Assembly (NCBI GenBank): GCA_021234155.1
Contig: JAJEKV010000010.1
Location: 10,774,511-10,838,510, forward strand
Reading direction: 5' to 3'
Length of the DNA: 64,000 nt
Source of the DNA: Isoetes taiwanensis
Lineage: Eukaryota; Streptophyta; Lycopodiopsida; Isoetales; Isoetaceae
Position 1 is the stretch's first letter. Each line of letters opens with the position of its first letter. Below the pieces are notes generated by a model. It saw only the letters and a list, made by a program, of their open reading frames with translations. It ran no database searches and had not been told where the DNA came from. The position numbers and the translations under genes are program-made. This document shows positions 3,627 through 64,000 of this stretch, one piece after another.

Positions 3627-5366
3627 GCAAAGAAGAAAAATGGGAAGCTGTATCCTCCTGGAACGTAAGTTATTACTTTGATTTTTTGGGGGGATTTAAA
3701 ATAATTTATTTGTTTTATTTTTTCTTTGTTTGCAGACTTAGCTCTTTGTTTAGAGGTGTTGGTAGAATAGTTAGAAGAGCGCAAGAGAAACGAATTGGAG
3801 AGACTGTGTCCGCGAACATCCTTTCAATATTAGAACTGATGCAGTTTTCTGTCGGATCCGTGAGGCTTTTGTTGGTATGGTAAGTCGAGGAAGGAGGAAA
3901 ATTATGAAAATGCAAAGAAGAAGGCTCCTATTATTACGCTCAACCTTGAGAGAGAAATTCTTTCTGACATTGATCATCAGATATCATATCCTTCAGGTTG
4001 TATCAAGCGCCTTGTATATTGCATGTTGATACGTTTTGGGATTAGGGCAACGAAGGAGTTATATCAGGTAAAAGATTGTGATATGTGTTTGGATAGAGAT
4101 GAAATTGAGGGGATAGTGAACTATGGGGAGAGGATCAGTAAGAATTATAATCCTACTATCACTAAGTTTGACAACGAGCACCTTAGAAAACCAGTCTGGA
4201 CACATAAGAAGGATTTTGTGCTTACATTTAAGCAATATATTCGCCACTTACCTGCAAAAGAGAAGGACGATGAAGCACGTCACTTCTTTCTGCAACCGAT
4301 CCCTAATTTTAGAACTATAGTGAGACTTTTTTATATGTTTTTGTATTTTATATTTTGTAGTTAATTTTCTGATATTCTATAACTGTGTATCGCAGACTTG
4401 GTATGCAGTTACACCAGTTGGTATCAGTTCACTTGGCAAGTGGCTTCGTACTATGGGTTCCGTTGTGAGTCCAGAAACGGAGATTTGTAATAAGTCTGGC
4501 AGAGTTTCATTGGTTACTCGTCTTGCTGCTTCCGATGCTCCTGCGATTGCTGGAATGCGAATTACAGGACATAAGAGTGTAGATGGATTTTTATGGTAAG
4601 TTCAATTCTTTTTTCTTTCCTGTTTTTTCCATGATGTATATTTTTCATGATATAATTGCTTATTGAATTGTTTAATTAACATGTTTTAGATACGACAGAA
4701 CTGGAGATTCTAAGATTAATGCATGCATCGAAATAATCGGACAGCCATGTAATGCAGACGGGTCGCCACGCTCTTACAAGGATGTGCTTGCAGGTAACTT
4801 CGGACAATCACCTTGTTTATTTGTTTTGTTCTTATCTTTTTTCAAATCTTATTTACTGGTTTTTTACAGCTGAAGTTCGTAAGCAGACCTCTGCTATAAC
4901 AGATTCTAATGCGGTTCTTGTGGAGGTTGATTGCAACATTGCTTTGGGTGGTCGAAGTTCTTTTCTGCATCGAGCTGATGGTATAACGGATGTTGGGAAG
5001 GAAAATGTCAAGGATTCTCCAGGTTCTATTTTAGAATTAAAAGATTCTTCAGCATCTGTCGTGCAATTGAAGGATTCTGGAGTTGCAGTGATGCCAGTTG
5101 CATCAGATATTCAAATGGTGAAGGCTAACAATTTCGAGGTCGACGATGATCCATACAACGATAATTTCTATGCTAGTTTGAGCAAGCAACATCCTAAGAG
5201 TGCAAAGGCGATGGGGGGGTTCATTGGGCCTGTTATTAATAATCGAGGTACTTTTTCTAATTGCACTTTCAACTTCGGTGGCGTTGAGGTTAAGGATTTA
5301 GCAGCGGTGATATGTGACGTTTTGGATAAAAATCGACATGGTTCTACTTCTGGCAGTGCAGTATAA
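3627..5366 (+). pseudogene. Crypton-type tyrosine recombinase gene, copy 1 (disrupted)
   Basis: Five exons with consensus splice sites can be followed: 3627-3664, 3736-4319, 4396-4595, 4690-4793 and 4870-5366. The first encodes KKKNGKLYPPGT, typical of the DNA-binding part of Crypton/DUF3504 recombinases. The catalytic part shows GIRATKE (first Arg, about 4,044), SGRVSLVTRL (second Arg), GHKSVDG and YDR (presumed nucleophile Tyr). The C-terminus carries NNRGTFSNCTFNFGG, a motif common in such proteins. Lesions: exon 3736-4319 needs two frame shifts to keep homology; the His of the usual HxxR box is Lys; and the codon across the 4595/4690 junction reads TGA just before the Tyr. The donor at 4,596 and acceptor at 4,689 leave no obvious alternative. 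Such recombinases cut and rejoin DNA through a tyrosine; this copy is probably inactive. The true 5' end is not resolved. Confidence 0.75.
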
Positions 5367-5600
5367 TGTTTGTGGCAGTATCAGTATGATGTTTATGGCA
5401 AAATCTGTTCTATATCAGTGGCCGTCTGTTCTGTATCAGAAAAACTTCTGTTGTGACCTTCTGTTGTTGGCACTTCTGTTGTGATCTTCAGTGGCAATCT
5501 TTTTGTAATGATAAACTTTGATGATAAGAAAGTCTTTTTGTAATGAGAAACTTTGATGACATAAACTTTGTAATTTTTGAGCAGATTATAACTGTGTAGT
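5367..5600 (+). other. 3' untranslated region / tail of Crypton copy 1
   Basis: T- and G-rich sequence with repeated TTTGTAATGA(T/G)AAACTTTGATGA motifs (near 5,502 and 5,539). It is conserved downstream of copy 2 (40,474-40,700) and of the third fragment (59,880-60,120), and a detached piece sits at 38,144-38,268. The conserved tail marks it as part of the mobile or duplicated unit. Confidence 0.6.
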
Positions 5601-5701
5601 TTTTGAGCAAGATGAATTATGTTTGTGGTGGAGGTGAAATTACTTGAAATAATTTGAGCCTAAAATAACAGTAATCCCAAGATCCCAAGCTGGCGTGTAT
5701 T

Positions 5702-5796: not shown

Positions 5797-5899
5797 TTGG
5801 ACAGATATTAACACGAGCTTTCTAAGTTGTTCTTCCAAGCTTGTAATCTGCTTGTCCAAACGCTTTCTAATTCTGCAATGCATCTAAAAAGATGGAGCG

Positions 5900-26224: not shown

Positions 26225-27939
26225 AGTTCGACCCAGCCCTAAATCCAAAGGCTGAGATTTGATCATTTCATTTAACGGTTGAGATTTGATGTAGTTCAGC
26301 GGCTATCTAGATTAGGTTCGACGCACAGGGAGTTCGTCGTGAGAAAGTAGAAGCCACGGTTCAGATACACACGATTTTTTCTACCTTCTCTTGCGAATTG
26401 CAATTTAAGGCTATTGGAGCAGAGGTTCTCGGATTCCTGGCCATGGCAGGGGCCATGGCAATTTTTGGTGTTTGTTTGCTCATCGATTCTCTGTGTGCTT
26501 CAATGCTAGAGAGCTTTCAAATTCTTTTTGCTATATAGTTTTTTAGCACGGCCATGGCTGCATGAATAGAGCTCAGTTTTGAGTAGGCTTCTTGTGAAAT
26601 TTGCCTATATTCTTATGGCTTCCTGCAAAATCTGTCTGTTCTTATGGGAATCGAGGCCACTATGGCCGATTATATCATGGTGCCAGTTTTGGGGGGAAGA
26701 TAAAGCTGGACAGAGCTGACTGAATGCTTCGGATCAATCTCTGCTGCATCTCTTGTAATTTCACATTCTGCACATACTTGAAGCAAATCTTCATCTTCCA
26801 TGTTTTTGCATTGAATTGGCAGACCTAGCACTTTCCTTTCTACTTGCACCTATCTGATCATTCTATAACCATTTATACATGAATTTTATTACTTCTTTTT
26901 GCAGGAGACTCCTGTGAAGACGGCTTCTTCTAAATTCACACCATGGCATCTAACGCTTTAAACGAAGGCCCTATAAAACTGATTTGGGATTTAAGCAGAA
27001 ATTACCCCGTGGAAGGAAGCATTGGCAATAAATACAGCTTACTCGGGAAGTGTAGAGCCTTTCCTTGATGATTTCCACTGTGATATTGTCTCTGATGATT
27101 TTCATTGAGGCAACTATTCTTTAAACTTATGTCCGGAGTTTGTCTTTTTCATTGCAGGTCTGCTTTCCCTTTCTGATCAAACTTTGTATTTTGTAATGCT
27201 TGCAATGTAATATTAAGACTACAAGTTTGCAACATTTCTTCATGGAAGACTTCCAAATTCTGCAACGTCCAAGTAACTACATATGACATTAACTATATAT
27301 CTTTACATTCTCTCATGTCTGCACACATCTTCCTGTGAAATCTTCCTGTTCTTGTGGGAATCGAGGCCACTATGGCCGCTTATCTCATGGTATCAGTTGC
27401 AGGGGGGAAGAAAAAGCTGGATAGAACTGACTGAACACTCCGGATCAATATCTGCTGCATCTCTGGTAATCTCATATTCTGCACAAAATTGATGCAAATC
27501 TTCATTTTCCATGTTTTTGTATTGAATTGGCAGACCTAGCACTTTCTTTTCTACTTGCAACAGATGAAAGTTACCTATCTGATCATTCTTTTCATTACTT
27601 CTTTTTGCAGGAGACTCCTTTGAAGACGGCTTCTTTTAAATCCACACCGTGGCATCTAACGCTTCCAAATTCTACCGCAGCATTTCTTCATGGAAGGCCT
27701 CCAAATTCTGTCACGTCCAAGCAAGTATGACATTAACTATGTACCTTTACATTCTCTCATGTCTGCACACATCTTCCTTTTGAAACAGAGCCTCCATTTG
27801 TTAGATTGAAAGTTAAAGGAAAGGAAAGGGCAATGCTGGTTATGGGGCCGTCATTTTTGATACCAGCTTCCAGCGAGTGCCCTGAGACATTTTCTGCTGC
27901 ACCACAAGAATAGACTCTATGGTACTGTAATAATAGTGA
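26225..27939 (+). repeat. Unit B, copy 1 (anonymous 1.7-kb unit with internal duplication)
   Basis: Four copies exist: here, 36,061-37,736, 56,622-58,018 and 62,002-63,402. Each has two internal subunits (about 26,595-26,990 and 27,305-27,735) that share GGGAATCGAGGCCACTATGG and a splice-like TTTTTGCAGGAGACTCCT. A frame after ACACCATGG at 26,940 reads MASNALNEGPIKLIWDLSRN and continues to a stop after about 41 codons. A smaller frame, MAGAMAIFGVCLLIDS, starts at 26,442. Both look like pieces of a spliced transcript, but I do not recognise a family. Confidence 0.6.
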
Positions 27940-35393: not shown

Positions 35394-36060
35394 TGATTAT
35401 TAAATCTATACTAGAGGAATTTGTACTTTGAAATGCTTTAATATGAATAAAAAACTGAAATTGCAGTGGGCATGCAATTGTACCTTAATAGTGAGCCTCT
35501 ACTTCCCTATTGATGTCAATTAATAAAATGTAGAAAAATGATTGTACATAAAAGCCTACATGTGCCATAAATTTGGATTTAAATGTTAGTTTCTTACAAC
35601 TCCAAACTTCTTCCAGACAGGCAATGTGAACTCATGCTACTTCTTATTGTCAGATTGAGACGTTTATTTCTTTGACGAATTTTCAAGTTTCATAGGCAAA
35701 ATAATATTCACAAGATTGCATGGAATCCTTATTGAATCTAAAAAATATTGCCCATCATTCCTATCAAGACTCATGGATATTTTCCCAACATTCTTTTTAG
35801 AAATAGAAAATTATGTCGTGTAGTGGTGATTGGCAGTCATAACTTAGGATAAGTCAAATGTGCCAAAAAAATTAATGGTAACAATTTATATTGTGGAGAT
35901 GTAAAAACGATGTGAGCCATATTTGAGAATAACAACCATGTGGTTGTGGGGGTTGTATAAATACCATCCTCAATTCTACTATCTTCATTTTTTGTGATTT
36001 TGCAGTGTCTAAAGCTTTTGTTTTTGTTGTGTTTTGGCCTGTCAACATTCCCGAGCATCG
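35394..36060. repeat. Host flank repeated at 37,737-38,145
   Basis: The first 400 bp (TGATTATTAAATCTATACTA onward) are repeated almost exactly at 37,737-38,145, and the two copies bracket unit B copy 2. The remaining 35,796-36,060 shows nothing assignable. Confidence 0.75.
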
Positions 36061-37736
36061 CTGAGATTTGATCATTTCATTTAATGGTTGAGATTTGATG
36101 TAGTTCAGCGGCTATCTCGATTAGGTTCGACGCATAGGGAGTTCGTCGTGAGAAAGTAGAAGCCACGGTCCAGATACGCACGATTTTTTCTACCTTCTCT
36201 TTGTGAATCGCAATTTAGGGCTATTGGAGCAGAGGTTGTCGGATTCCTGGCCATGGCAGGGGCCATGGCAATTTTTGGTGTTTGTTTGCTCATCGATTCT
36301 CTGTGTGCTCCAATGCTAGAGAGCTTTCAAATTCTTTTTGCTATATAGCTTTTTAGCACGGCCATGGCTGCATGAATAGAGCTCAGTTTTGAGTAGGCTT
36401 CTTGTGAAATTTGCCTATATTCTTATGGCTTCCTGCGAAATCTGTCTGTTCTTATGGGAATCGAGGCCACTATGGCCGGTTATATCATGGTGCCAGTTTT
36501 GGGGGGAAGACAAAGCTGGACGAGTCCGACCAACGCTTAGGATCAATCATTTCAGCATCTCTGGTAATTTCACATTCTGCACATACTTGAAGCAAATCTT
36601 TATCTTCCATGTTTTTACATTGAATTGGCAGACCTAGCACTTTTCTTTCTACTTGCACCTATCTGATCATTCTATAACCATTTATACATGAATTTTATTA
36701 TTTCTTTTTGCAGGAGACTCCTGTGAAGACGGCTTCTTCTAAATTCACACCATGGCATCTAATGCTTTAAACGAAGGCCCTATAAAACTGATTTGGGATT
36801 TAAGCGTAAAATTACCCCGGAAGGAAGCTTTGGCAATAAATACAGCTTACTCAGGAAGTGTAGAGCCTTTCCTTGATGATTTCCACTGTGATATTGCCTC
36901 TGATGATTTTCACTGAAGCAACTATTCTTTAAACTCATGTCCGGAGTTTGTCTTTTTCATTGCAGGTCTGCTTTCCCTTTCTGATCAAACTTTGTATTTT
37001 GTAATGCTGGCAATGTAATACTAAGACTACAAGTTTGCAACATTTCTTCATGGAAGACTTCCAAATTCTGCAACGTCCAAGTAACTATGACATTAACTAT
37101 ATATCTTTACATTCTCTCATGTCTGCACACATCTTCCTGTGAAATCTTCCTGTTCTTGTGGGAATCGAGGCCACTATGGCCGCTTATCTCATGGTACCAG
37201 TTGCAGGGGGGAAGAAAAAGCTGGATAGAGCTGACTGAACACTCCGGATCAATATCTGCTGCATCTCTGGTAATCTCATATTCTGCACAAAATTGATGCA
37301 AATCTTCATTTTCCATGTTTTTGTATTGAATTGGCAGACCTAGCACTTTCTTTTCTACTTGCAACAGATGAAAGTTACCTATCTGATCATTCTTTTCATT
37401 ACTTCTTTTTGCAGGAGACTCCTTTGAAGACGGCTTCTTTTAAATCCACACCGTGGCATCTAACGCTTCCAAATTCTACCGCAGCATTTCTTCATGGAAG
37501 GCCTCCAAATTCTGTCACGTCCAAGCAAGTATGACATTAACTATGTACCTTTACATTCTCTCATGTCTGCACACATCTTCCTTTTGAAACAGAGCCTCCA
37601 TTTGTTAGATTGAAAGTTAAAGGAAAGGAAAGGGCAATGCTGGCTATGGGGCCGTCATTTTTTATACCAGCTTCCAGCGACACCCTGAGACATTTTCTGC
37701 TACACCACAAGAATAGACTCTATGGTACTGTAATAA
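36061..37736 (+). repeat. Unit B, copy 2
   Basis: About 97% or better by eye to 26,250-27,939, ending at the unoccupied Helitron site AATAGTGA/TGATTATT. The frame corresponding to MASNALNEGPIKLIWDL starts at about 36,752 and differs downstream by small indels, arguing against strong coding constraint. Confidence 0.6.
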
Positions 37737-38143
37737 TAGTGATGATTATTAAATCTATACTAGAGGAATTTGTACTTTGAAATGCTTTAATATGAATAAA
37801 AAAATGAAATTGCACTGGGCATGCAATTGTACCTTAATAGTGAGCCTCTACTTCCCTATTGATGTCAATTAATAAAATGTAGAAAAATGATTGTACATAA
37901 AAGCCTACATGTGCCATAAATTTGGATTTAAATGTTAGTTTCTTACAACTCCAAACTTCTTCCAGACAGGCAATGTGAACTCATGCTACTTCTTATTGTC
38001 AGATTGAGACGTTTATTTCTTTGACGAATTTTCAAGTTTCATAGGCAAAATAATATTCACAAGATTGCATGGAATCCTTATTGAATCTAAAAAATATTGC
38101 CCATCATTCCTATCAAGACTCATGGATATTTTCCCAACATTCT

Positions 38144-38565: not shown

Positions 38566-38739
38566 CGAGACAGGTTCAAAAGCAGCAGGTTCATATTCCT
38601 ATAGAGAACCTGCCATTAAAGACATTGAACGAGATGCTGACCAAAGTTCTCATTCAGATAATTTTTTCCATGCAGAATTTTTGATTATGTTTTCTATATT
38701 TGCATTAAATTTTTTACTTCTCTTATGTTGTTAATTTAG

Positions 38740-40473
38740 GCAAAGAAGAAAAATGGGAAACTGTATCCTCCTGGAACGTAAGTTATTACTTTGATTTTTT
38801 GGGGGGATTTAAAATAATTTATTTGTTTTATTTTTTCTTTGTTTGCAGACTTAGCTCTTTGTTTAGAGGTGTTGGTAGAATAGTTAGAAGAGCGCAAGAG
38901 AAACGAATTGGAGAGACTGTGTCCGCGAACATCCTTTCAATATCAGAACTGATGCAGTTTTCTGTCGGATCCGTGAGGCTTTTGTTGGTATGGTAAGTCG
39001 AGGAAGGAGGGAAATTATGAAAATGCAAAGAAGAAGGCTCCTATTATTACGCTCAACCTTGAGAGAGAAATTCTTTCTGACATTGATCATCAGATATCAT
39101 ATCCTTCAGGTTGTATCAAGCGCCTTGTGTATTGCATGTTGATACGTTTTGGGATTACGGCAACGAAGGAGTTATATCAGGTAAAAGACTGTGATATGTG
39201 TTTGGATAGAGATGAAATTGAGGGGATAGTGAACTATGGGGAGAGGATCAGTAAGAATTATAATCCTACTATCACTAAGTTTGACAACGAGCACCTTAGA
39301 AAACCAGTCTGGACATATAAGAAGGATTTTGTGCTTACATTTAAGCAATATATTCGCCACTTACCTGCAAAAGAGAAGGACGATGAAGCACGTCACTTCT
39401 TTCTGCAACCGATCCCTAATTTTAGAACTATAGTGAGACTTTTTTATATGTTTTTGTATTTTATATTTTGTAGTTAATTTTTCGATATTCTATAACCGTA
39501 TCGCAGACTTGGTATGCGCTTACACCCGCTTGGTATCGATTCACTTGGCAAGTGGCCGTTACTATGGGTTCCGTTGTGAGTCCAGAAACGGAGATTTGTA
39601 ATAAGTCTGGCAGAGTTTCATTGGTTACTCATCTTGCTGCTTCCGATGCTCCTGCGATTGCTGGAATGCGAATTACAGGACATAAGAGTGTAGATGGATT
39701 TTTATGGTAAGTTCAATTCTTTTTTCTTTCCTGTTTTTTCCATGATGTATATTTTTCATGATATAATTGCTTATTGAATTGTTTAATTAACATGTTTTAG
39801 ATACGACAGAACTGGAGATTCTAAGATTAATGCATGCATCGAAATAATCGGACAGCCATGTAATGCAGACGGGTCGCCACGCTCTTACAAGGATGTGCTT
39901 GCAGGTAACTTCGGACAATCACCTTGTTTATTTGTTTTGTTCTTATCTTTTTTCAAATCTTATTTACTGGTTTTTTACAAATGAAGTTAAATGCGCACCT
40001 CCTGCTATAAATGATTCTAATGCGGTTCTTGTGGAGGTTGATTGCAACATTGCTTTGGGTGGTCGTTCTTTTACGCCCGAAATGATGGTATAACGGATGT
40101 TGGGAAGGAAAATGTCAAGGATTCTCCAGGTTCTATTTTAGAATTAAAAGATTCTTCAGCATCTGTCGTGCAATTGAAGGATTCTGGAGTTGCAGTGATG
40201 CCAGTTGCATCAGATATTCAAATGGTGAAGGCTAACAATTTCGAGGTCGACGATGATCCATACAACGATAATTTCTATGCTAGTTTGAGCAAGCAACATC
40301 CTAAGAGTGCAAAGGCGATGGGGGGGTTCATTGGGCCTGTTATTAATAATCGAGGTACTTTTTCTAATTGCACTTTCAACTTCGGTGGCGTTGAGGTTAA
40401 GGATTTAGCAGCGGTGATATGTGACGTTTTGGATAAAAATCGACATGGTTCTACTTCGGCCGTCACAGTATAA
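38740..40473 (+). pseudogene. Crypton-type tyrosine recombinase gene, copy 2 (disrupted)
   Basis: Exons correspond to copy 1: 38740-38777, 38849-39432, 39507-39706, 39801-39904 and about 39,980-40,473. It shares the two frame shifts in the second exon and the TGA at the 39,706/39,801 junction. In addition the first catalytic Arg (GIRATKE in copy 1) is Thr (GITATKE, 39,157-39,159). The acceptor of the last exon reads ACAAATG instead of ACAGCTG, and 39,507-39,570 is altered to ALTPAWYRF. Those last two changes sit on CAG/CTG sites and may be sequence errors; the shared lesions are not. Confidence 0.75.
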
Positions 40474-43071
40474 TGTTTGTGGCAGTATCAGTATGATGTT
40501 TATGGCAAAATCTGTTCTATATCGGTGGGTCGTCTGATTACGTATCGAAAAAACTTCATTTGTGACCTTACATTGTTGGCACTTCATTTGTGATCTTCGG
40601 CAATCTTTTGTAATGATAAACTTTGATGATAAGAAAGTCTTTTGTAATGAGAAACTTTGATGACATAAACTTTGTAATTTTGAAGCAGATTATAACCGTA
40701 GTTTTTGAGCAAGATGAATTATGTTTGTGGTGGAGGTGAAATTACTTGAAATAATTTGAGCCTAAAATAACAGTAATCCCAAGATCCCAAGCTGGCGTGT
40801 ATTATGTGGATGTGATGAATTTTGCCGAATTGTCCAAAGAGCACTACCATTATTGTCGTTATGTGGATGCGATGAATTTCTCGGAATTGTCCAAAGAGTT
40901 GGACAGATATTAACACGAGCTTTCTAAGTTGTTCTTCCAAGCTTGTAATCTGCTTGTCCAAACGCTTTCTAATTCTGCAATGCATCTAAAAAGATGGAGC
41001 ATCATAAAATTATAACTAGGATATTGCTATGTTAAATTCCAATTTTCACTTGGTCTCAGATATCCTTTTTAACCTTAATAAAATTTTATAAATTTTAGCA
41101 ACTAGTTTCAATCTGTATAGCTGCTACTAATTGTCATGATGTAACGAAGAACAGGGATTACCATTCAAAAGCCTTAAACAGAGAATGCATCAATCATCTG
41201 TATGTGTGTATTGTTCTTTCTGTAATGCGGGTGAGAGCGAATGATAAATCACAGCTACTGTTTCATGGTTTTGGCATACACGAATATTTAGAAACCCAAA
41301 ATTTAAATCACAATGTACACCAATCAAACTACTTTGAAGAAATAACTTAAAAGCAAGCCCATGATCATTCAGGAGTCCAAGTCCTCCTGGTCCAGACTCC
41401 ACTTTTTCCACCAGACTTCAACTCCAATTGAATATTGCATATTTGTACTTTCTTGAATGCAGCTTTAAACATATCATAAACAGTGAGACAAGCAAGCAAC
41501 AGAAACAACAACCATTGCTTCCATTCTACAACTGTTGGACCAACTGACATCACCTAAATGTCAATGGATCCAAACCCTATATAATGTTCCTCGGGGAAAC
41601 ATTTTCCTACGCAAAGGGCAGGAGTGAAGAAGTTCTTCCTGCGGCTTCCACCGCCATAGCTCCGACTTCCGCCGTCATAGCACACCTGCTAAAGGCGTTG
41701 CCATAATGCCTCCTCTCTCATAGAAGTTGCATAGGTACCCATAATGGTTGGGTTGCGATTTCGCTCCAGACGATTTCACAACCTTTTTTAAAGGTTTGGG
41801 TAATGGTTTGATATATTTAGATTTTAGAAAGTAGGGTTCTTTCTCGTTTTGGTCGCGGCCCTCAGGGTCTCCTGGTCTGCAACCTGGACACAGAAGACCT
41901 TGTTCAAGAAGACCCTATTCAATAAGCCTGTTGTGGTTTGCCAAGACTTCTCTATTCTGTTGTGCTCCTCCTTGGAGTTTATTTTTGCCGAGCTTACCTT
42001 CAAATTCAGTTGTTGCTTCATGGTTTGCTGTTGACAGTGTGCTTTGTGAAGAATCAAACTGTATATTTCCGGTTCTGATTAGAACCTTAATATAGAATCG
42101 GAGCAAGCTTATTAATGTAGATCAATGGATTTGCAATTTATCATGTTACTTAATATAGAATTGGAGCAAGGTTATTACTGATGAAGATCAATGGATTTTT
42201 AATTTATCGTGTTACTATCTTTTTTTTCCTTACTTCATGGCATATTTTCTTAATTTCTTATCCTGTAGTATAAAACGCTTCTGTTGAGGACCTGAACAGC
42301 TGGTCGAATGGGCTTCTTAAGATAGTATAGGGAGAGACGTCTTGCAAAAAATGAGAAGAGAAGCAAAGTGCTGCATTAAAAGCACTATAAAGACAATATT
42401 GATCAGGACGAAATCGTAGGATAGGGGGTTCTTAGAGCTCCAAGATCTTGCAATGCATTGTCATCTAATTTTTGGAAACTTCAAATGGTTTATTTTAAGG
42501 AAGCTAACATGCCCAACAATATTTGAGATGTAAGCAAGATATTTGATGATTATAAAATGATTAAAGAAACTCTGTAACAAATTGAGATACATTTGAACCA
42601 TCTGATGCTCTCAACCAAACATCTTACCATACCGATTTGGTAGCAAAGATTGAGAGGTATTCAAGCAGCACAAATGCACTTATATAGCTATAAACAAAAA
42701 ATGCCTTGTTTGGTTGACTCCCTAATAGGTGCATTTCGCAATAAGGTTGTAGAGCCTCATTATCTCCTCCATCTTATGCATCTTGTGTGTAAAGGAAATC
42801 CCAAAACATCTGAAGCATTTCCTACCTGGAATTTAGTTAGTTGATAAACAACAAAACTTAGCCGAACAGACAACCAGAAAAGAGATAAATTAGAAAACAT
42901 TTATTAATAGGAGCTATAGACTTCCTCTTGAGTGTTTCGCTCCTTATCTTATGCCTCTTAAAAGTCCAACTATCAAAAGCTAACAATAGATAGAGACATC
43001 ATGCATATATAGGAAACAACATTTTTATCTACAACACGTACTTCATCTTTTAAGCTCGTCAAGTTTGCCAA
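40474..43071. other. Second copy of Crypton tail and flank
   Basis: Colinear with 5,367-8,016. The conserved 57-bp direct repeat is at about 40,804-40,898, and the 7,225-7,740 equivalent is at 42,330-42,830. The tail 40,500-40,640 differs from copy 1 almost only at CAG/CTG sites. No gene is recognised. Confidence 0.6.
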
Positions 43072-43217
43072 CATATGACAGGCTTTGCAGGAGGACAAAG
43101 CTCTTGGACTTCAGCAACAGCTTTTGCTGTTGTGATGGGTTTGTAGATGACAGGCCCTCGGCCTAGCAAAATGTCAAATGGAAGGTTTATACCAGCCAAT
43201 GGTGTTAGACTATCTGA
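43072..43217 (-). pseudogene. Uroporphyrinogen decarboxylase fragment, copy 2
   Basis: The same single-exon fragment as 8017-8162, with one clear change (SDIL to SDSL at 43,209-43,211). The box PFDILLGRGPIIYKP is preserved. It is carried by the segmental duplication, so it is not an independent capture. Confidence 0.8.
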
Positions 43218-43567
43218 TTGCCAAAAAGATAGGTAAGGCCATAGCCAAGCACTTGGCTGACCACCACCATTGCCACTACTTGCAAAAATTATGCAGTGTC
43301 GTATTATTCTGCAAAATGCTTTATAACAGCTGGTCTAATGGGGGCCATAAGATCTTTGTGATGTTGTCACCTTGATAGTCCCCTAAGGAGGATGGTGAGA
43401 TTCATCTGCTTCTACACAACATGCTTCAAGCGGGGCTTCAAGTTCCAATGGATACTGAATCAACTTTTAATTCCCTTTTCTTCTCCTTCTGCTCACTTCT
43501 GCAGAACTCCAAAGTAGCCAAACTATTACCAAAATATGACTCAGTGGCCTAAATGTCTTTCTTTTAG

Positions 43568-43789
43568 CTAGGTATTTATATTGGCCACTTCCTCATCCAC
43601 TTCAATGAAGCTAGCAGTCACATCCTTCAATGAAGGAGAGGCCAGATTCATCTACACGCTATCTGGTAAGCTAATCAATGCCTTCTCTATCCCGTACTTA
43701 AGATCTCTATCAAAGTTTTGAACATCTAGTTCAAGTGCACAAGCTTTTTCATATTCAGTAAGGTCAGTAGAACTGAGATTTAGATTATC
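43568..43789 (-). pseudogene. UPF0496 / BPS1-like fragment, copy 2
   Basis: Corresponds to 8513-8734 and keeps EYEKACALELDVQNFD and SLKDVTASFI, with several substitutions (for example RDLKYGIEKA). The in-frame TAG after PDSV is retained, so the stop predates the duplication. Confidence 0.7.
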
Positions 43790-44154
43790 CAAGGGGTGTG
43801 AACATTAGCTATGGTCATTTCCCATTGTCAAAGGGACTGCCCATTTTGGACGTTCCAAGTCAAGCTTAATCTACTACCAGGTTCTGAGAAAATAACTTGA
43901 TGATGTACAGGACATAGAACAAAAAATGATAAACAGGACATAGAACAAAAATTGAAGCTAAAACCTTACGACAAAGCCTATAAAAGCCTGTTCTCTCCTC
44001 ATATCCAAGCCTCCTTCCCTGCCAACTGCAATGCAAAATTAAAATCAAATTGAAGTTCTAAATGATTTAAGCTATAAATGAAAGTCCGGATTCTAAACAA
44101 ATTAACGATTCTTTCAAAGCAGCAAAAAAAGATCCATTCTTTCTCTTTTGTTAC

Positions 44155-44305
44155 CTCTCTCATACATATCGATGAAATAGGTATAGGGATCCATTTCAGG
44201 ATCTATTGCAGCAGCTTCCTATGTAAGACTGATCCATTCTTCAAGAACAGGAGCAAGAAGGCCAAATTCATTGTTCTTTCTTGCCATAGCCCAGGCTTCT
44301 ATGCC
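44155..44305 (-). pseudogene. M32 carboxypeptidase-like exon, copy 2
   Basis: Identical in layout to 9100-9250, including both TAG codons and the GAGAG/GTAACA donor. It confirms that the fragment and its lesions were duplicated together. Confidence 0.6.
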
Positions 44306-45057
44306 CTATGCTTCTAAAACTGCTTTGCAGCCTGAAACTCTTCAAGAGCATTTTCGCAGAGGCCACTGCAATCCTCCTTGTGTCAGAAACTATGTTTGGT
44401 TTGTAACCAGCAAAACACTTCTCATTCCAAACTTATTCTGGCTGGCATCCTCATATCTTAGTATGTCTTATATCAGGCTGCAAAACATATTGTGCATTTT
44501 GTAAGTGCAAAGAAGAAAATCTTTGTATAGTTTTTCTGAACAATAGACAAGAAATATGCCTTAAATTTTACAGGAACAACACAGACACCCAGGCTGTTTG
44601 ACATCAAGCGATTCATAAAGCGTGTCTTGGTGATGCGCATTCTCGCACTGCGAGAAATTAAAACTGCACGACTAACTACTAAAGCATTTCAAGCTAACAG
44701 TTAAGCTTGTTAACAGGTCATGCATAAGAAACAGATAGAACTACAGGTCATGTATAAGAAACAGATAGAACTACAGGTCATGCGTTTTAGACGGAGAGAA
44801 GGAGGAATTTGAGAGCCGGACTAAAGAAAAAAGTGTGCAAATTTAAGTGGATCTTGAAAAGGATAAACAGATGGTACTTACTGTTTGACGAAATGGCTGG
44901 CCATTGCAGATTTGAATGCTATTGACAGTAAACGTGGCATTCCAGAACTACAAAACTTTAACACGGCTGTTAGATTACGATGACAACGCATTGTACCTGC
45001 CATCAAAGGAGATGGAGATAGCCTAGACTTCCTGGGTCCTGAGATAGCCTGACGACC

Positions 45058-54604: not shown

Positions 54605-55275
54605 CTGGGCCGGTAGCTTTGTCGAAACTGGTCCTTGCACTTATGCAGATCTAAGAATCTTGCTTCCACCAGCTGAAAATACAGATATGCCATTTCTAAT
54701 GAGGCAGCCATGGAAACGTTTCCTTTGATGGTTGATTCCACGGTAGACCTGTTAGCTCAGCAGGAACACATATTGTTGATCCGAAGAACATGGTAAGATA
54801 AACCCAAACCCACGGATAAACACGTTCCTTTCCTTCCAATGCTAAGAAAAGTATTAAGAAGCTGGGAGAGTATTTGCTGCCACGAAATTCCACTTGAATT
54901 AAAGAGCATTATGCAAAGCCACGCTAGCTTCTAGATGATTAATGAAGCCAACAAAGGGAATCTGTATATTGACAGAAAGAACATTTCTGCTTGGCCATTT
55001 CATCTCTGTGAATAACATCTGTGCAGTCTTTTATCTCCCCAATTGCAAAGCCCAACTATTCCTTGAAAATTTCGTCTTTGTGTATACCTTGAAGCTTCCG
55101 TCTTCACCTCCATAGTGCTTGTGGAAAGAAAGAAGGGCAAATCTATGAAGAAGCAACTCAAGCCGGGCTTTGTTTTCTTTGCTGCACATGACGGTGTTGT
55201 TGAGGTCCAAATGTGCCCATCGAACCATGAAACAGGCTGCTAAGAATCGGCTGCTTGTTCCTCGTTTATGGGCCA
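54605..55275 (-). pseudogene. Two exons of an unidentified captured gene
   Basis: Exon 55,088-55,275 (acceptor TTTGCAG, donor TTCAAG/GTATAC) reads AHKRGTSSRFLAACFMVRWA, then LDLNNTVMCSKENKARLELL. Exon 54,605-54,748 (acceptor AACAG, donor CCCAG/GTTATT) reads SMAASLEMAYLYFQLVEARF, then LDLHKCKDQFRQSYRP. Good splice sites and even composition indicate real former exons. The phases do not match directly, so an exon between them is missing or they come from different genes. The first exon recurs in part at 60,494-60,650. Confidence 0.5.
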
Positions 55276-55636
55276 CTGCAAAAAACGGATTTTGCTAGAT
55301 GAGGCGAAAACCTAAGCTAAACGGATTTTTGCTAGATGCTGGCCGTTCTTGATAAACCTATAGCATAATGCTATCGGTTTCTATCATGCCTTGGTCTTTT
55401 GATCCTGCCGGAGTAAGAAGGAATAGCGCTAAAACTCTTAGTAAACCTATAGCATAATGCTGTCGGTTTCTATCATGCCTTGGTCTTTGATCCTGCCGGA
55501 GTAGAAAGGAATAGCGCTAAAACTGTGTTGTGTTAAAAGTTCGAAAGATTGGCAAATCGTAACCATAGGATAAAGTGATTAAACCTCAGCCGTCGGATCT
55601 AGGGCGTGGTCCATTACACAAAAATTACACAAAAGA

Positions 55637-56621
55637 TATGCACTTCATTGCTTTCAAAATCACCTCCCCTTTTCCCCCCTTTTTTTCTTTTTGTTCGTGA
55701 ATTATCATAAGGTTAAGGCTTCAAACTCAAATGAAGTAATGGATTGTTTTACATATGTCATAATCAGAAAATGCTTGTCGTAACCCGTACATTTCGAAAG
55801 GCCAACAAGGGCTAATGAATGGATTTAGTAATAACATGTGATAAAATAAATAGTGATGATATAATTTCTATCTCAAGGAGAATGCATATAGATAATGCAG
55901 AAATGTGTGCATATACTAAAGCAAGAAATATACACATATACTAAAACAAGAAACTTTTCTAATGAACAACATATATCTAATCCATGGGAGGTCCTTAATG
56001 AGAGTATCATACGGCATGGTTTCATAGCCAAGAAGAGTTCTCGATGTGCAGAATATAGAGCTCTGATAATGGCACTTCCATCCGTTCCCAACGAACACTA
56101 GATATGGCTACATCAATGACATGAAAGAAGCCCCTAAGCTGCCCTCTCAGGATCCAAAGTGAGGCTGCTATCCTTTGTGCTTTTATACTAGTTTGAATGA
56201 TGCTCGATACAACATGTATAGAAAAAACCTCTTTAGGTTTTTCAGGATAGACTCTGGAATCTAGATGGGAGGCATAATCTTATAGCTTACTATTAATGGT
56301 GCCCAAATAAGTTGGGGCTAGGTTGGAAACTTGTTATTGACTTTAGAAAATTGAATGCGCATACCTTGCAATTTAACAGCCACTAAGTGTATACAGGATA
56401 TGAAGCAACTTTGGTATAGCAACTCTACGTCTAGATTCTTTTGTGAGGGAGGGAGAGAGGGATGGAGGGAGGAGGAGATGTGCACGAATAGTAGTATTTG
56501 GAATTGCCAACCTTTTGCATAACAAATCAAGTGTACTAATTGTAATGATCCACCTTTTGATACAAAAATAAATAGCATTGAAGTGCATTGAAGTATATTA
56601 TAAAGTTATAGTGTAAGTGTT
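55637..56621. repeat. PLAT 3'-flank block, with degenerate Helitron 3' end
   Basis: Equivalent to 25,261-26,224. The Helitron terminus at 56,290 is altered (CTAT instead of CTAG, hairpin lost where CAG and CTG stood). A near-identical copy follows at 61,011-61,980. Confidence 0.65.
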
Positions 56622-58018
56622 GGACCCAGCACTAAATCCAAAGGCTGAGATTTGATCATTTCATTTAACGGTTGAGATTTGATGTAGTTCAGCGGCTATC
56701 TCGATTAGGTTCGACGCACAGGGAGTTCGTCGTGAGAAAGTAGAAGCCACAGTCCAGATACGCACGATTTTTTCTACCTTCTCTTGTGAATCGCAATTTA
56801 GGGCTATTGAAGCTGTAGGTTGTCTGGATTCCCCGCCCATGGCGATGCTCTAATGGGGCCATGGCAATTTTGGTGTTTGTTTGCTTTATCGATTCTCTGT
56901 GGTGCTCCAATGCTAGAGAGCTTTCAAATTCTTTTTGCCATATAGCTTTTTAGCACGGCCATGGCTGCATGAATAGAGCTCAGTTTTGAGTAGGCTTCTT
57001 GTGAAATTTGCCTATATTCTTATGGCTTCCTGCGAAATCTGTCTATTCTTATGGGAATCGAGGCCACTATGGCCGGTTATATCATGGTGCCAGTTTTGGG
57101 AGGAAGACAAAGCTGGACAGAGTGACCGAACAACGCTTGATCAATCTCTGCAGATCTCCTCGGTAATTTCACATTCTCGCACATACTTGAAGCAAATCTT
57201 CATCTTCCATGTTTTTGCATTGAATTGGCGACCTAGAACTTTCCTTTCTACTTGCACCTATCTGATCATTCTATAACCATTTATACATGAATTTTATTAC
57301 TTTTTTTGCAGAGACTCCCGTGAAGATGGCTTCTTCTAAATTCACACCATGGCATCTAACGCTTTAAAACGAAGGCCCTATAAAACTAATTTGGGATTTA
57401 AAGCGTAAATTACCCCTGCGGAAGGAAGCATTGGCAATAAATACACTTTTACTCAAGAAGTGTAGAGCCTTTCCTTGATGATTTCCACCGTGATATTGCC
57501 TCTCGATGATTTTCACCAAGCAACTATTCTTTAAACTTATGTCCTGAGTTTGTCTTTTTCATTGCAAGTCCGCTTTCCCTTTCTCGATCAAACTTTGTAT
57601 TTTGTAATGCTTGCAATGTAATACTAAGACTACAAGTTTGCGCGATTTTTCTTCATGGAAGGCTTCCAAATTCTCGCAACGCCCAAGTAAGTATGACATT
57701 AACTATATATCTTTACATTCTCTCATGTCCGCACACATCTTCCCCGTGGAAATCACCCTTGTTCTTGTGGGAATCGAGGCCACTTGTGGCCGCTTATCTC
57801 ATGGTACCGCCAGTGTGGAGGAAGAAAAAGCTAGATAGAGCTGACCGAACACCGGATCAATATCTGCCGCATCTCCTCGTAATCTCATATTCTCGCACAA
57901 AATTGATGCAAATCTTCATTTTCCATGTTTTTATATTGAATTAGCAGACCTAGCACTTTCTTTTCTACTTGCAACAGATGAAAGTTACCTATCTGATCAT
58001 TCTTTTCATTACTTCTTT
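56622..58018 (+). repeat. Unit B, copy 3
   Basis: Shorter than copies 1 and 2 because it ends at CATTACTTCTTT and passes straight into PLAT upstream sequence with a triplicated AACACGGCTT. Many small differences from copies 1 and 2 fall on CTG/CAG sites (for example TCTCGCAC for TCTGCAC near 57,174). Confidence 0.6.
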
Positions 58019-58212
58019 AACACGGCTTAACACGGCTTTAACACGGCTGTTAGGTTACGATGACAATGCATTGATAATGCAAATGCCTTATCTTCGCATC
58101 CAAATCAAACTCATCTCCTTTTCTGTGGTTGTCTACTGGCCAAGTCACGTCCCAACGTCTGCCTTCCTTAGTATAAAGCATGAGAAATTCATCCCTATAT
58201 CTAAAGACAAGT

Positions 58213-58861
58213 ATGGCTCCACTACGAAGCTATGGTGCGTATGACCACCAAAGTTGCATTTGTAAGAAATTGCATCTTTTAGAATTTGTGATTTCTTATC
58301 AAGAAAGTGCATGGTGAAATCATTTTCAAAGGGTTGCATATTAAGAAGTGGTGCTTAGATTTTGTATCTTGCAGATCGTTTTCAAAGTGTTGCATAGAGA
58401 TTCTGGAATGCAAATGCATGTAGGCCTATTGCTAATGATGGGGCTTGTGTTGTTTAGGCCATTTCCTCTTTTCGTGTCTAAGGTATTTGCTATTGCAGGG
58501 TTGCACTTATTCAATCGCTGTCAAGACCGATTGTCGACGAAATGCTGGTACAGATGCCAACGTAAGTGTACAATTTTATAATGCTACTGGTCAATCTGTG
58601 ACTTTCAACAACCTAGATGATCCTAATCATAATGACTTTGAGAAGTGCAACTATGATACCTTCACTAGGCAAGGTGCATGCATTGACGGAATTTGTCACA
58701 TGCGTGTATGGCATGATAATACCGGCGACAAACCTGGGTGGTATTTGAACTTTATAGATGTTTCAAAAGATGGAGCTGCTGCCAAGAGATTTAATGTCAA
58801 CCGATGGTTGGCCCTTGATGAATCCTCTTATTCTACTACTGCAGAAGTTAATATGTGCTAG
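58213..58861 (+). pseudogene. PLAT-domain gene, copy 5 (divergent; signal exon damaged)
   Basis: Exon 2 (58499-58861, 363 nt, 120 residues) is open and more divergent than the other copies, with NNLDDPNHNDFEKCNYDTF in place of the shorter NLENANRFRKC form, and VWHDNTGDKPGWYLNFIDVS, closest to the general plant PLAT consensus. Exon 1 (ATG at 58,213) has lost 14 bp inside the signal peptide (after AGCTATGG), so the normal splice gives a frame shift. The same deletion is in copy 6, so it is not a random error. It may be rescued by another start, but none is obvious. Confidence 0.75.
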
Positions 58862-59640: not shown

Positions 59641-59900
59641 TTGGGCCCACCAATCGCACCTATTCAAGGTGCTAGTAGTAGTAGAACCTGTGCTAGTTTG
59701 AGCAATCAACATCCCGAGAGTGCAAAGGCGATTGGGAGGTTCATTGGGCCCCTTATTAATAATCGAGGTACTTTTTCTGATTGCACTTTCAACTTCGGTG
59801 GCGTTGATGTCAAGGATTTAGCAGCGGTCACATATGATATGTGACGTTTTGGATAAAAATCGACATGGTTCTACTTCCGGCGGTCAGCAAAGATAATGTT
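59641..59900 (+). pseudogene. Crypton recombinase C-terminal fragment, copy 3
   Basis: From about 59,690 it encodes ASLSNQHPESAKAIGRFIGP, then NNRGTFSDCTFNFGGVDVKD, clearly homologous to the last exon of copies 1 and 2 but with several amino-acid changes. The catalytic domain is absent. The tail (59,880-60,480) matches the Crypton 3' flank, including the 57-bp repeat near 60,235. It is older or from a different subfamily than copies 1 and 2. Confidence 0.75.
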
Positions 59901-60493
59901 TGTGGCGATCGATTGATGTTTATGGCAAAATCTGTTTCTATATCGGTGGGTCTACGTTGCGTTCATCGTAAAAACTTCATTGTGACCTTCTGTTGTTGGC
60001 ACTTCTGTTGTGATCTTCAGTGGCAATCTTTTTGTAATGATAAACTTTGATGATAAGAAAGTCTTTTTGTAATGAGAAACTTTGATGACATAAACTTTGT
60101 AATTTTTGAGCAAATTATAACTGTGTAGTTTTTGAGCAAGATGAATTATGTTTGTGGTGGAGGTGAAATTACTTGAAATAATTTGAACCTAAAATAACAG
60201 TAATCCCAAGATCCCAAGCTGGCATGTATTATGTGAATGTGATGAATTTTGCCGAATTGTCCAAAGAGCACTACCATTATTGTCGTTATGTGGATGCGAT
60301 GAATTTCTCGGAATTGTCCAAAGAGTTGGATAGATATTAACACCAGCTTTCTAAGTTGTTATTCCAAGCTTGTAATCTGCTTGTCCAAACACTTTCTAAT
60401 TCTGCAATGCATCTAAAAAGATGGAGCGTCATAAAATTATAACTAGGATATTGCTATGTTAAATTACAATTTTCACGTGGTCTCCTTTTTAAC

Positions 60494-61010
60494 CTTAATA
60501 AAAAAAGGGCAAATCTATGAAGAAGCAACTCAAGCCGGGCTTTGTTTTCTTTGCTGCACATGACGGTGTTGTTGAGGTCCAAATGTGCCCATCGAACCAT
60601 GAAACAGGCTGCTAAGAATCGGCTGCTTGTTCCTCGTTTATGGGCCATTGCAAAAAATGGATTTTGCTAGATGAGGCGAAAACCTAAGCTAAACGGATTT
60701 TTGCTAGATGCTGGCCGTTCTTGATAAACCTATAGCATAATGCTATCGGTTTCTATCATGCCTTGGTCTTTTGATCCCCGCCGGAGTAAGAAGGAATAGC
60801 GCGCTAAAACTCTTAGTAAACCTATAGCATAATGTTTGTCGGTTTCTATCATGCCTTGGTCTTTGATCGTGATGGAGTAGAAAGGAATAGCGCTAAAACG
60901 TGTTGTGTTAAAAGTTCGAAAGATTGGCAAATCGTAACCATAGGATAAAGTGATTAAACCTCACCGCCGGATCTAGGGCGGGTCCATTACACAAAAAATT
61001 ACACAAAAGA
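60494..61010 (-). mobile_element. Helitron 5'-end fragment
   Basis: Matches 55,129-55,636, ending at the same GA/TATGCACTTC junction. Sequence before 60,494 is Crypton flank, so the fragment starts at a rearrangement point. It marks the left edge of the tandem duplication that includes PLAT6. Confidence 0.75.
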
Positions 61011-63599
61011 TATGCACTTCATTGCTTTCAAAATCACCTCCCCTTTTCCCCCCTTTTTTTCTTTTTGTTCGTGAATTATCATAAGGTTAAGGCTTCAAAC
61101 TTAAATGAAGTAATGGATTGTTTTACATATGTCATAATCGAGAAAATGCTTGTCGTAACCCTGTATACATTTCAAAGGCCAACAAGGGCTAATGAATGGA
61201 TTTAGTAATAACATGTGATAAAATAAATAGTGATGATATAATTTCTATCTCAAGGAGAATGCATATAGATAATGCAGAAATGTGTGCATATACTAAAGCA
61301 AGAAATATACACATATACTAAAACAAGAAACTTTTCTAATGAACAACATATATCTAATCCATGGGAGGTCCTTAATGAGAGTATCATACGGCATGGTTTC
61401 ATAGCCAAGAAGAGTTCTCGATGTGCAGAATATAGAGCTCTGATAATGGCACTTCCATCCGTTCCCAACGAACACTAGATATGGCTACATCAATGACATG
61501 AAAGAAGCCCCTAAGCTGCCCTCTCAGGATCCAAAGTGAGGCTGCTATCCTTTGTGCTTTTATACTAGTTTGAATGATGCTCGATACAACATGTATAGAA
61601 AAAACCTCTTTAGGTTTTTCAGGATAGACTCTGGAATCTAGATGGGAGGCATAATCTTATAGCTTACTATTAATGGTGCCCAGCGTTGTTGGGGCTAGGT
61701 TGGAAACTTGTTATTGACTTTAGAAAATTGAATGCGCATACCTTGCAATTTAACAGCCACTAAGTGTATACAGGATATGAAGCAACTTTGGTATAGCAAC
61801 TCTACGTCTAGATTCTTTTGTGAGGGAGGGAGAGAGGGATGGAGGGAGGAGGAGATGTGCACGAATAGTAGTATTTGGAATTGCCAACCTTTTGCATAAC
61901 AAATCAAGTGTACTAATTGTAATGATCCACCTTTTGATACAAAAAATAAATAGCATTGAAGTGCATTGAAGTATATTATAAAAAGTTATAGTGTAAGTGT
62001 TGGACCCAAAGACTAAATCCAAAGGTCGAGATTTGATCATTTCATTTAATCGGTTGAGATTTGATGTAGTTCAAATTAGCTATCTCGATTAGGTTCGGCG
62101 CAAAATCGCGGGAGTTCGGTCGTGAGAAAGTAGAAGCCACAAAATTCGTGATCACGCCTGATTTTTCTACCTTCTCTTGTGAATCGCAATTTAGGGCTAT
62201 TGAAGCGAGGGTGTCAGATTCTGTCCATGGCGGATGCTCTAATGGGGCCATGGCAATTTTTGGTGTTTGTTTGCTTATCGATTCTCCGATGGCTCCAATG
62301 CTAGAGAGCTTTCAAATTCTTTTGCCATATAGCTTTTTAGCACGACCATGGTCGCATGAATAGAGCTCGGTTTTGAGTAGGCTTCTTGTGAAATTTGCCT
62401 ATATTCTTATGGCTTCTGCGAAATCTGTCTATTCTTATAAATCGAGGCCACTATGGCGGTTATATCATGGTGCCAGGTTTGGGAGGAAGACAAAGGGCGA
62501 CAGAGTCGACCCAAACGCTTCGGATCAATCTCTGCTTTGATCTCTGGTAATTTCACATTACGCACATACTTGAAGCAAATCTTCATCTTCCATGTTTTTG
62601 CATTGAATTGGCGGACCTAGAACTTTCCTTTCTACTTGCACCTATCGATCATTCTATAACCATTTATACATGAATTTTATTACTTCTTTTTGCGGGGAGA
62701 CTCCTGTGAAGACGGCTTCTTCTAAATTCACACCATGGCATCTAACGGCTTTAAACGAAGGCCCTATAAACCGATTTGGGATTTAAGCGAAATTACCGTT
62801 TGGAAGGAAGCATTGGCAATAAATACGACTTTACTCAAGAAGTGTAGAGCCTTTCCTTTGATGATTTCCATGCGTGATATTGCCTCGATGATTTTCATAT
62901 GAAAAAACTATTCTTTAAACTTATGTCCGGAGTTTGTCTTTTTTTTCATTGCAAAACAACGCTTTCCCTTCGATCAAACTTTGTATTTTGTAATGCTTGC
63001 AATGTAATACTAAGACTACAAGTTTGCAGCATTTCTTCATGGAAGGCTTCCAAATTCTGCAGCGTCAAGTAAGTATGACATTAACTATATATCTTTACAT
63101 TCTCTCATGTGCACACATCTTCACGATGAAATCTGCACTGGTGGGAATCGAGGCCCTTTGTGGCAGCGCTTATCTCATGGTACCCGGCCTTGGGGAGGAA
63201 GAAAAAGCTAGATAGAGTGGCCCGAACACTCGGATCAATATCTGCTTGCATCTCCGGTAATCTCATATTCTCGCACAAAATTGATGCAAATCTTCATGTT
63301 TCCATGTTTTTATATTGAATTAAGCGGACCTAGCACTTTCTTTTCTACTTGCAGCAAATGATGAAAGTTACCTATCCGATCATTCTTTTCATTACTTCTT
63401 TAACACGGCTTAACACGGCTTTAACACGGTACAGTTGGGTTCACGATGACAATGCATTGATAATGCAAATGCCTTATCTTCGCATCCAAATCAAACTCAT
63501 CTCCTTTTACTTGGTTGTCTGGGGCCAAGTCACGTCCCCAACGTCTGCCTTCCTTAGTATAAAGCATGAGAAATTCATTCCCTATATCTAAAGACAAGT
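61011..63599. repeat. Tandem duplicate of 55,637-58,212, including unit B copy 4
   Basis: Colinear with the preceding copy at an offset of about 5.37-5.39 kb: PLAT 3' flank (61,011-61,990), then unit B (62,002-63,402), then PLAT upstream. The first kilobase is nearly identical; from about 62,025 differences become frequent and nearly all sit on CAG or CTG. The degenerate Helitron end is at 61,667. Confidence 0.75.
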
Positions 63600-64000
63600 A
63601 TGGCTCCACTCACACGAAGCTATGGTGCGTATGACCACCAAAGTTGCATTTGTAAGAAATTGCATCTTTTAGAATTTGTGATTTCTTATCAAGAAAGTGC
63701 ATGGTGAAATCATTTTCAAAGGGGTTGCATATTAAGAAGTGGTGCTTAGATTTTGTATCTTGCGGATCGTTTTCAAAGTGTTGCATAGAGATTCGGAATG
63801 AAAATGCATGTAGGCCTATTGCTAATGATGGGGCTTGTGTTGTTTAGGCCATTTCCTCTTTTCGTGTCTAAGGTATTTGCTATTGCAGGGTTGCACTTAT
63901 TCAATCGCTGTCAAGACCGATTGTCGACGAAATGCTGGTACAGATGCCAACGTAAGTGTACAATTTTATAATGCTACTTGGTCAATCTCATGACTTTCAA
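63600..64000 (+). pseudogene. PLAT-domain gene, copy 6 (cut by window end)
   Basis: ATG at 63,600 and an exon-1 lesion identical to copy 5 (14-bp loss) plus CACA inserted after CCACT. Exon 2 begins at 63,889 after TTGCAG and continues past the window edge. It matches copy 5 (TDCRRNAGTDANVSVQFYNA) until frame errors near ACTTGGTCAATCTCATG, which replace ACTGG and TCTGTG and again involve CTG. Confidence 0.7.

What the first reader, a model, noticed from the sequence alone, without database searches (positions are those of the whole stretch)
39480..40640. Differences between duplicated copies sit almost only on CAG/CTG sites: a CHG-methylation signature in the raw data
Comparing 39,480-40,640 with 4,368-5,540: TTCTGATATT becomes TTTCGATATT, TATGCAGTT becomes TATGCGCTT, ACCAGTTGG becomes ACCCGCTTGG, ATATCAGTGG becomes ATATCGGTGG, ACTTCTGTTG becomes ACTTCATTTG. 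Non-CAG/CTG stretches between them are identical. CAG/CTG is the symmetric CHG site methylated in plant transposons. The changes are not C-to-T but CTG to CG, TCG, CCG, ACG or CAT, which deamination cannot make. The simplest reading is base-calling failure at methylated CHG cytosines, so the errors act as an unintended methylation map.
Basis: partly seen in the sequence, partly recalled or inferred. Interest (0 to 1): 0.85.

Follow-up and report, generated by a model that had tools for sequence, protein, structure and literature searches.

The report
Methylated-DNA misreads baked into an assembly
Many of the differences between repeated copies here are probably not mutations but systematic long-read misreadings at CAG/CTG sites, most likely where the plant's DNA is methylated, so the assembled sequence is wrong in patches, even in ribosomal RNA genes.

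Summary
In the 6.15 kb duplicated block, 29 of 177 CAG/CTG sites of copy 1 are altered in copy 2, against 13.3 for shifted controls. They sit in three patches, with 21 of 29 sites broken inside and 7 of 148 outside. At 19 of the 21 patch sites at least one other genome copy not seen as corrupted keeps the motif, at 14 a majority. The same k-mer becomes the same wrong string at unrelated places: in other copies of the repeat, in 5S rDNA arrays (CATCAG>CATCG) and in 5.8S genes. The replacements are not deamination; they often create CpG, and CAG and CTG are hit equally. Sixteen of 16 full-length histone H4 genes are intact. The best explanation is nanopore base-calling failure at cytosines methylated outside CpG, mainly CHG. 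The "methylation map" claim is weaker: clean and corrupted patches alternate over about 100-400 bp, follow CAG/CTG density, and look like what polishing left behind. Some CCG/CGG and CpG sites in 5S are also hit, and one duplicated pair shows no enrichment. The kind of error is known.

The parts
39478..39562 (+). Corrupted patch 1 of copy 2 (counterpart 4365-4450): CAG/CTG 6 -> 1, CpG 2 -> 7
39972..40091 (+). Corrupted patch 2 of copy 2 (counterpart 4861-4985): CAG/CTG 7 -> 1, CpG 4 -> 5
40453..40708 (+). Corrupted patch 3 of copy 2 (counterpart 5346-5605): CAG/CTG 16 -> 6, CpG 1 -> 8
39563..39971 (+). Clean interval between patches 1 and 2: CAG/CTG 14 in both copies
40092..40452 (+). Clean interval between patches 2 and 3: CAG/CTG 9 in both copies
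4365..5605 (+). Copy 1, the intact counterpart; at 19 of 21 patch sites at least one other, not visibly corrupted genome copy shares its CAG/CTG
59871..59990 (+). Third window copy, corrupted at several of the same sites; 10 of 17 CAG/CTG sites broken relative to copy L048
61981..64000 (+). Further corrupted stretch relative to 56601-58600 (CAG/CTG 40 -> 25, CpG 61 -> 71); the first copy is probably corrupted in places too (16 of 42 sites touched in the reverse direction)

Best explanation
The CAG/CTG differences in the patches are consensus sequencing errors. Native plant DNA was read by nanopore with a base-caller trained on DNA whose 5-methylcytosine lies mainly in CpG. At CAG/CTG, which is symmetric, both strands carry 5mC, so reads of both strands are misread in a k-mer-specific way, and voting between strands cannot fix it. 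The caller often writes the nearest CpG-containing string (ATCAG>ATCG, GCAG>GCGC/GCGT, TTCTG>TTACG), which removes CAG/CTG and adds false CpG. Later polishing repaired most sites and left error islands where errors are dense or copies are too alike (tandem 5S arrays). Shown: site specificity, polarity at 19 of 21 patch sites, recurrence of the same wrong string, non-deamination spectrum, CpG gain, equal CAG and CTG hits, intact histone genes. Inferred: the nanopore platform, 5mC as the modification, CpG-only training as the reason for CpG output, and polishing as the reason for patchiness.
For: Polarity: at the 21 patch sites, copies not seen as corrupted keep the motif in 93 of 139 covered cells (42 other letters, 4 gaps); at least one keeps it at 19 of 21 sites, a majority at 14. 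Recurrence of the same string in different copies: TTTCTGC>TTTACGC in copy 2 and L041; GAGCTGATG>GAAATGATG in copy 2, L040, L041; TATCAGAAA>TATCGAAAA in copy 2, L041, L047; TATCAGTGG>TATCGGTGG in copy 2, copy 3, L047; ATGCAG>ATGCGC at two different sites (copy 2, L040). Of the 26 sites broken in L041 relative to L039, its relative L040 keeps 19, has the same string at 2 and another at 5; L050 keeps all 13 that it covers. One-way: L039 -> L041 loses 26 of 48 CAG/CTG while CpG rises 27 -> 38; L041 -> L040 loses 2 of 24. Copies chosen as corrupted (copy 2, copy 3, L041, L047): 63 of 131 sites broken (31 CAG, 32 CTG), 39 of 63 gaining CpG, 2 of 63 a single C>T/G>A; six comparison copies (L003, L004, L038, L040, L042, L050): 49 of 218 broken, 11 of 49 and 16 of 49. 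5S arrays: of 71 usable units, position 40 of the CAG at 39-41 is altered in 61% and position 78 of the CTG at 78-80 in 72%, while positions 84-93 show 0%. Exact-pattern search of the genome: CATCAG 16, CATCG 22, CATCGG 1 of 39 in array C13; 30 of 30 elsewhere intact. Second pattern (100 of 102 matches listed): 43 of 56 altered in C13, 9 of 14 in the C907 array, 1 of 30 elsewhere with the array-type string. 5.8S: GCAG>GCGT in 5 and GCAGCG>GCAAAT in 6 of the 15 sequences aligned, one of which (L015) was in the wrong orientation. H4: 16 of 43 matches are full length, all 16 at 99-100% identity without stops; the 12 fetched hold 109 CAG/CTG sites.
Against: No reads, raw signal or bisulfite data were available, so platform and methylation are inferred. 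At 2 of 21 patch sites (4383, 4425) no other copy keeps the motif, so polarity there is open, and at 7 of 21 no majority does. In 5S, non-CHG sites are hit too: the CpG in AGCGCG in 0.57 and in TACGTG in 0.71 of 56 units, and one CAG/CTG site (TTCCTGCTC) in only 0.09; one perfect unit served as reference, so real spacer variation is counted as error. Not all replacements gain CpG (39 of 63). One duplicated pair (26251 vs 36060) shows no enrichment. Of the 50 sites in the named interval 29 are untouched. The 5S patterns need exact neighbours: the altered units of C907 seen escape the first pattern, so 30 of 30 intact elsewhere (8 of them in C907) overstates cleanness. In principle an array variant could spread by unequal crossing over, though not to unrelated repeats.
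Confidence: 0.9

Rival explanations
1. The errors form a faithful CHG methylation map: corrupted patches are methylated, clean patches are not.
For: Errors were found in repeats and rDNA arrays while 16 of 16 full-length H4 genes are intact.
Against: Methylation would have to switch on and off over about 100-400 bp inside one repeat copy (14 and 9 intact sites between patches). Sites clean in copy 2 are corrupted in L041. Broken sites have more CAG/CTG neighbours within 150 bp (mean 11.3 vs 8.2, p = 3e-5; the sites are clustered, so the p-value is optimistic). 5S units range from perfect to heavily corrupted next to each other.
Confidence: 0.25
2. True mutations: an unusual mutational process at CAG/CTG, or recombination/gene conversion with an unseen variant repeat.
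For: The strings are stably present in an assembled consensus; arrays can spread variants by unequal exchange (general knowledge). At 2 of 21 patch sites no other copy shares copy 1's motif.
Against: The same k-mer gives the same string in unrelated loci and in copies whose close relatives mostly lack it. Degenerate 5S arrays in the same genome show the ordinary spectrum: 39 of 54 counted changes C>T or G>A, 1 indel, 7 units, one of them perfect.
Confidence: 0.05
3. Deamination of methylated CHG cytosines (C>T), as is usual for old plant repeats.
For: Present elsewhere: the degenerate 5S arrays and the comparison repeat copies.
Against: In the four corrupted copies only 2 of 63 broken sites are a single C>T/G>A.
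Confidence: 0.02
4. Generic long-read noise (homopolymer or low-coverage errors) unrelated to methylation.
For: Some single-base run-length differences occur in 55129-58608 vs 60501-64000.
Against: Site specificity, recurrence, and 5S positions 84-93 without error in 71 units while position 78 is altered in 72%.
Confidence: 0.03

Closest known systems
Dcm (CCWGG) methylation errors in nanopore consensus, Wick et al. 2019 (PMC6591954; passages read)
   Same: 5mC in a symmetric CWG-centred motif absent from the training data gives systematic consensus errors: about 70% of errors with then-current default ONT models, about 0.002% error after training on such data
   Different: Bacterial, one motif; here a plant-type nuclear genome, many CAG/CTG contexts, patchy, with frequent false CpG
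Modification-mediated errors in Listeria at GCAGC/GCTGG, Chiou et al. 2023 (PMC10687267; passages read)
   Same: Errors centred on CAG/CTG-containing motifs; whole-genome amplification improved the genomes
   Different: Strain-specific bacterial systems; no CpG-emission pattern seen in the passages read
Lower nanopore accuracy on native plant DNA (PMC7501810, passages; PMC9749173, abstract and passages)
   Different: The word CHG does not occur in PMC9749173; its single use in PMC7501810 concerns methylation itself; neither, in the passages read, gives k-mer rules or traces in assemblies
Residual errors in a polished plant nanopore assembly, maize A188 (PMC8188678; passages read)
   Same: After Nanopolish and Pilon, about 96.4% of potential errors lay in transposons or other repeats; genic accuracy above 99.97%
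   Different: The passages read do not tie these errors to CHG sites

Membership tests
Modification-mediated nanopore base-calling errors | Errors tied to a sequence motif | tested here: met
   21 of 29 CAG/CTG in patches broken; trinucleotide table and shift controls
Modification-mediated nanopore base-calling errors | Systematic: same k-mer gives same wrong string at independent loci | tested here: met
Modification-mediated nanopore base-calling errors | Absent from unmodified DNA | tested here: inconclusive
   16 of 16 full-length H4 genes intact, but their methylation state was not measured; the psbA contig found no useful nuclear copies
Modification-mediated nanopore base-calling errors | Vanish in amplified DNA or with a retrained model; low base quality at sites | not testable with these tools
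   no reads or signal held
Plant CHG (CWG) methylation as the cause | Symmetric CAG and CTG equally affected | tested here: met
   31 CAG and 32 CTG broken
Plant CHG (CWG) methylation as the cause | Only CHG contexts affected | tested here: not met
   some CpG and GCGC sites in 5S units also altered
Plant CHG (CWG) methylation as the cause | 5mC present at the sites (bisulfite/signal) | not testable with these tools
   none held
5mC deamination / RIP-like mutation | C>T / G>A changes | tested here: not met
   2 of 63 broken sites; seen in degenerate 5S arrays (39 of 54)

The most novel reading that the evidence does not exclude
A fixed k-mer code links 5mC in CHG to false CpG-bearing strings in plant nanopore assemblies ('methyl-C is written as CpG'). 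Archived FASTA files without raw data would then hold a partial, one-sided CHG methylome: a corrupted site means methylated, an intact site means nothing. It could be read wherever repeat copies or rDNA give the expected sequence.
Probability: 0.35. Interest if true: 0.6.

Novelty: new member of a known kind. Interest (0 to 1): 0.42.

Why it matters
If true, part of the divergence between repeat copies in such assemblies is not evolution. Repeat ages, CpG content, rDNA variant counts and gene models in repeats are distorted, and false CpG sites mislead methylation callers that use the assembly as reference. It also gives a cheap test for a plant assembly: look for CATCG in place of CATCAG in the 5S array. 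And it may give a one-sided way to recover CHG methylation from archived assemblies.

Tried and rejected
Plastid insertions as a known-sequence ruler: the PF00124 search and a DNA search with the psbA contig gave no long, near-identical nuclear copies, so the test could not be made. 18S rRNA: the tool gave no usable answer and was not tried again; 5.8S was used instead. The 45S comparison against L016 is hard to read because the reference copy may itself be altered; only the 5.8S part is used, where L015 was aligned in the wrong orientation and is of no use. CpG and CAG/CTG observed/expected per 500 bp was considered as a detector without duplicates and dropped: CpG deamination alone also lowers CpG and raises CAG/CTG. 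Homogenisation of copy 2 by short reads of copy 1 was considered because the two clean intervals are nearly identical (1 difference in about 770 bp). It was left open because an equally identical stretch (8650-9383) exists outside. Of 86 5S hits (79 array, 7 degenerate), one search kept 78 (71 array, 7 degenerate): 7 array hits with fewer than 85 aligned bases were dropped and 1 more by the length rule. One search kept 56 full units 300-400 bases long. In one search L043, L044, L045, L046 and L049 were not counted, L048 and L039 served as references, and the groups were chosen. L040, counted there among the comparison copies, has a small corrupted patch of its own; leaving it there works against my claim. 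The organism was not identified; the 5S and 5.8S look land-plant-like by recall only.

Full report
The window is G000:C908:10774511-10838510 of a 1.66 Gb assembly in 1110 contigs. Two long copies of one block, 3467-9619 and 38580-44701, are about 96-98% identical over their main aligned pieces. The differences between them were listed.

The enrichment is real and patchy. In three patches of copy 2 (39478-39562, 39972-40091, 40453-40708; borders drawn after seeing the differences), 21 of 29 CAG/CTG sites of copy 1 are broken; in the rest of the block 7 of 148 are. CAG/CTG falls 29 -> 8 and CpG rises 7 -> 20 in the patches. With no choice of patch, 29 of 177 sites are touched, against 13.3 in circular shifts, 0 of 5000 reaching 29. 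The pair 55129-58608 / 60501-64000 shows the same in both directions (36 of 62; 16 of 42). The pair 26251-27939 / 36060-37742 does not (8 of 61; 5 of 58). Two further pairs with 16-17 sites show 4 to 5 touched sites against 1.2 to 1.4 expected. These are five of the 18 pairs aligned; the other 13 were not tested this way.

Copy 2 is the deviant at nearly all patch sites. At the 21 sites, genome copies of the repeat not seen as corrupted keep CAG/CTG in 93 of 139 covered cells (42 other letters, 4 gaps); at least one keeps it at 19 of 21 sites, a majority at 14; at 4383 and 4425 none does, so polarity is open there. Four further copies are corrupted: copy 3 of the window, L041, L047 and a small patch of L040. 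They share k-mer-specific wrong strings with copy 2. Of 26 sites broken in L041 relative to L039, L040 keeps 19, shares the string at 2 and has another at 5; L050 keeps 13 of the 13 it covers. L041 is corrupted at sites where copy 2 is clean, so those sites are not immune.

The process is one-way and not deamination. Across the four copies chosen as corrupted (copy 2, copy 3, L041, L047) 63 of 131 sites are broken, 31 CAG and 32 CTG; 39 gain CpG and 2 are a single C>T/G>A. In six comparison copies 49 of 218 are broken, 11 gain CpG and 16 are a single C>T/G>A. Fisher p for the last two contrasts is 5e-5 and 3e-5; sites of related copies are not independent, and the groups were chosen after seeing the alignment.

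An independent ruler is 5S rDNA, whose sequence is under strong constraint (general knowledge). In two arrays (C13, C907), 71 of 79 hits were usable; the units range from perfect (9 of 71) to more than 40 altered positions. Position 40 of the CAG at 39-41 is altered in 61%, position 78 of the CTG at 78-80 in 72%, and positions 84-93 in none. Over 56 full repeat units the mean broken rate is 0.59 for 8 CAG/CTG sites, against 0.17 for trinucleotides away from CAG/CTG, CCG/CGG and CpG. Some CpG sites are also high (0.57, 0.71) and one CAG/CTG site is low (0.09), so the rule is k-mer-specific and not purely CHG. Seven units of degenerate arrays show the ordinary spectrum, 39 of 54 changes C>T or G>A. 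Exact-pattern searches of the genome: CATCG or CATCGG at 23 of 39 matches in C13 and 0 of 30 elsewhere, of which 8 lie in the C907 array and 22 outside both arrays. The altered C907 units seen have a second change inside the pattern and so escape it. With the second pattern 43 of 56 are altered in C13, 9 of 14 in the C907 array, and 1 of 30 elsewhere carries an array-type string (21 intact, 8 other variants), among the 100 of 102 matches listed. 5.8S genes show GCAG>GCGT (5) and GCAGCG>GCAAAT (6) among 15 aligned sequences, one of them mis-oriented. Sixteen of 16 full-length histone H4 genes are intact.

Mechanism. Misreading of modified cytosine by a nanopore base-caller explains the site choice, the recurrence and the spectrum. 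Such errors are documented for bacterial 5mC at CCWGG (PMC6591954, passages) and for GCAGC/GCTGG motifs in Listeria (PMC10687267, passages). [quoted passage not shown] PMC9749173 suspects plant methylation (abstract and passages). In the maize A188 assembly, polished with Nanopolish and Pilon, about 96.4% of potential errors lay in repeats (PMC8188678, passages). That the wrong string often contains CpG fits a model which met 5mC mainly in CpG; this is my inference. That CAG/CTG stands out from CCG fits strand voting: CAG/CTG carries 5mC in a CHG context on both strands. This too is inference.

The methylation-map claim. Errors left after polishing explain this at least as well as methylation boundaries. 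Corrupted sites may mark methylation; clean sites say nothing.

Literature limits. Ten full-text searches were run, four of them returning nothing. No listed title or abstract start describes CHG-to-CpG miscalls in plant assemblies; five papers were opened, in passages only, and subscription journals and preprint servers are largely not held.

Noticed in passing
L009-L012 (G000:C13:282001-306000 and C907:40703001-40710000): 5S rDNA arrays heavily corrupted in the assembly, 9 perfect genes of 71 interspersed among altered ones.
   Followed up: yes
L013, L014 (G000:C1041:12717301-12719000, C1103:277301-279500): Small degenerate 5S arrays with a C>T/G>A spectrum (39 of 54 changes, 7 units), an internal example of true decay.
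   Followed up: partly
window 12792-13274: PLAT/LH2 (ATS3-like) domain frame (PF01477, 6.8e-9) inside a segment repeated several times in the window.
   Followed up: no
window 3864-4364 and 4737-5366: Open frames of the duplicated repeat with no Pfam match at E <= 0.1; nature of the repeat unknown.
   Followed up: no
G000:C840 (34,556 bp), L017: Small contig with an open psbA-like frame and no long near-identical nuclear copies found: plastid fragment or contaminant.
   Followed up: partly
window 8001-9500: CpG observed/expected about 0.2 with high CAG/CTG: looks long-term deaminated, yet only 2 CAG/CTG sites there differ between the copies (8637, 9411).
   Followed up: no
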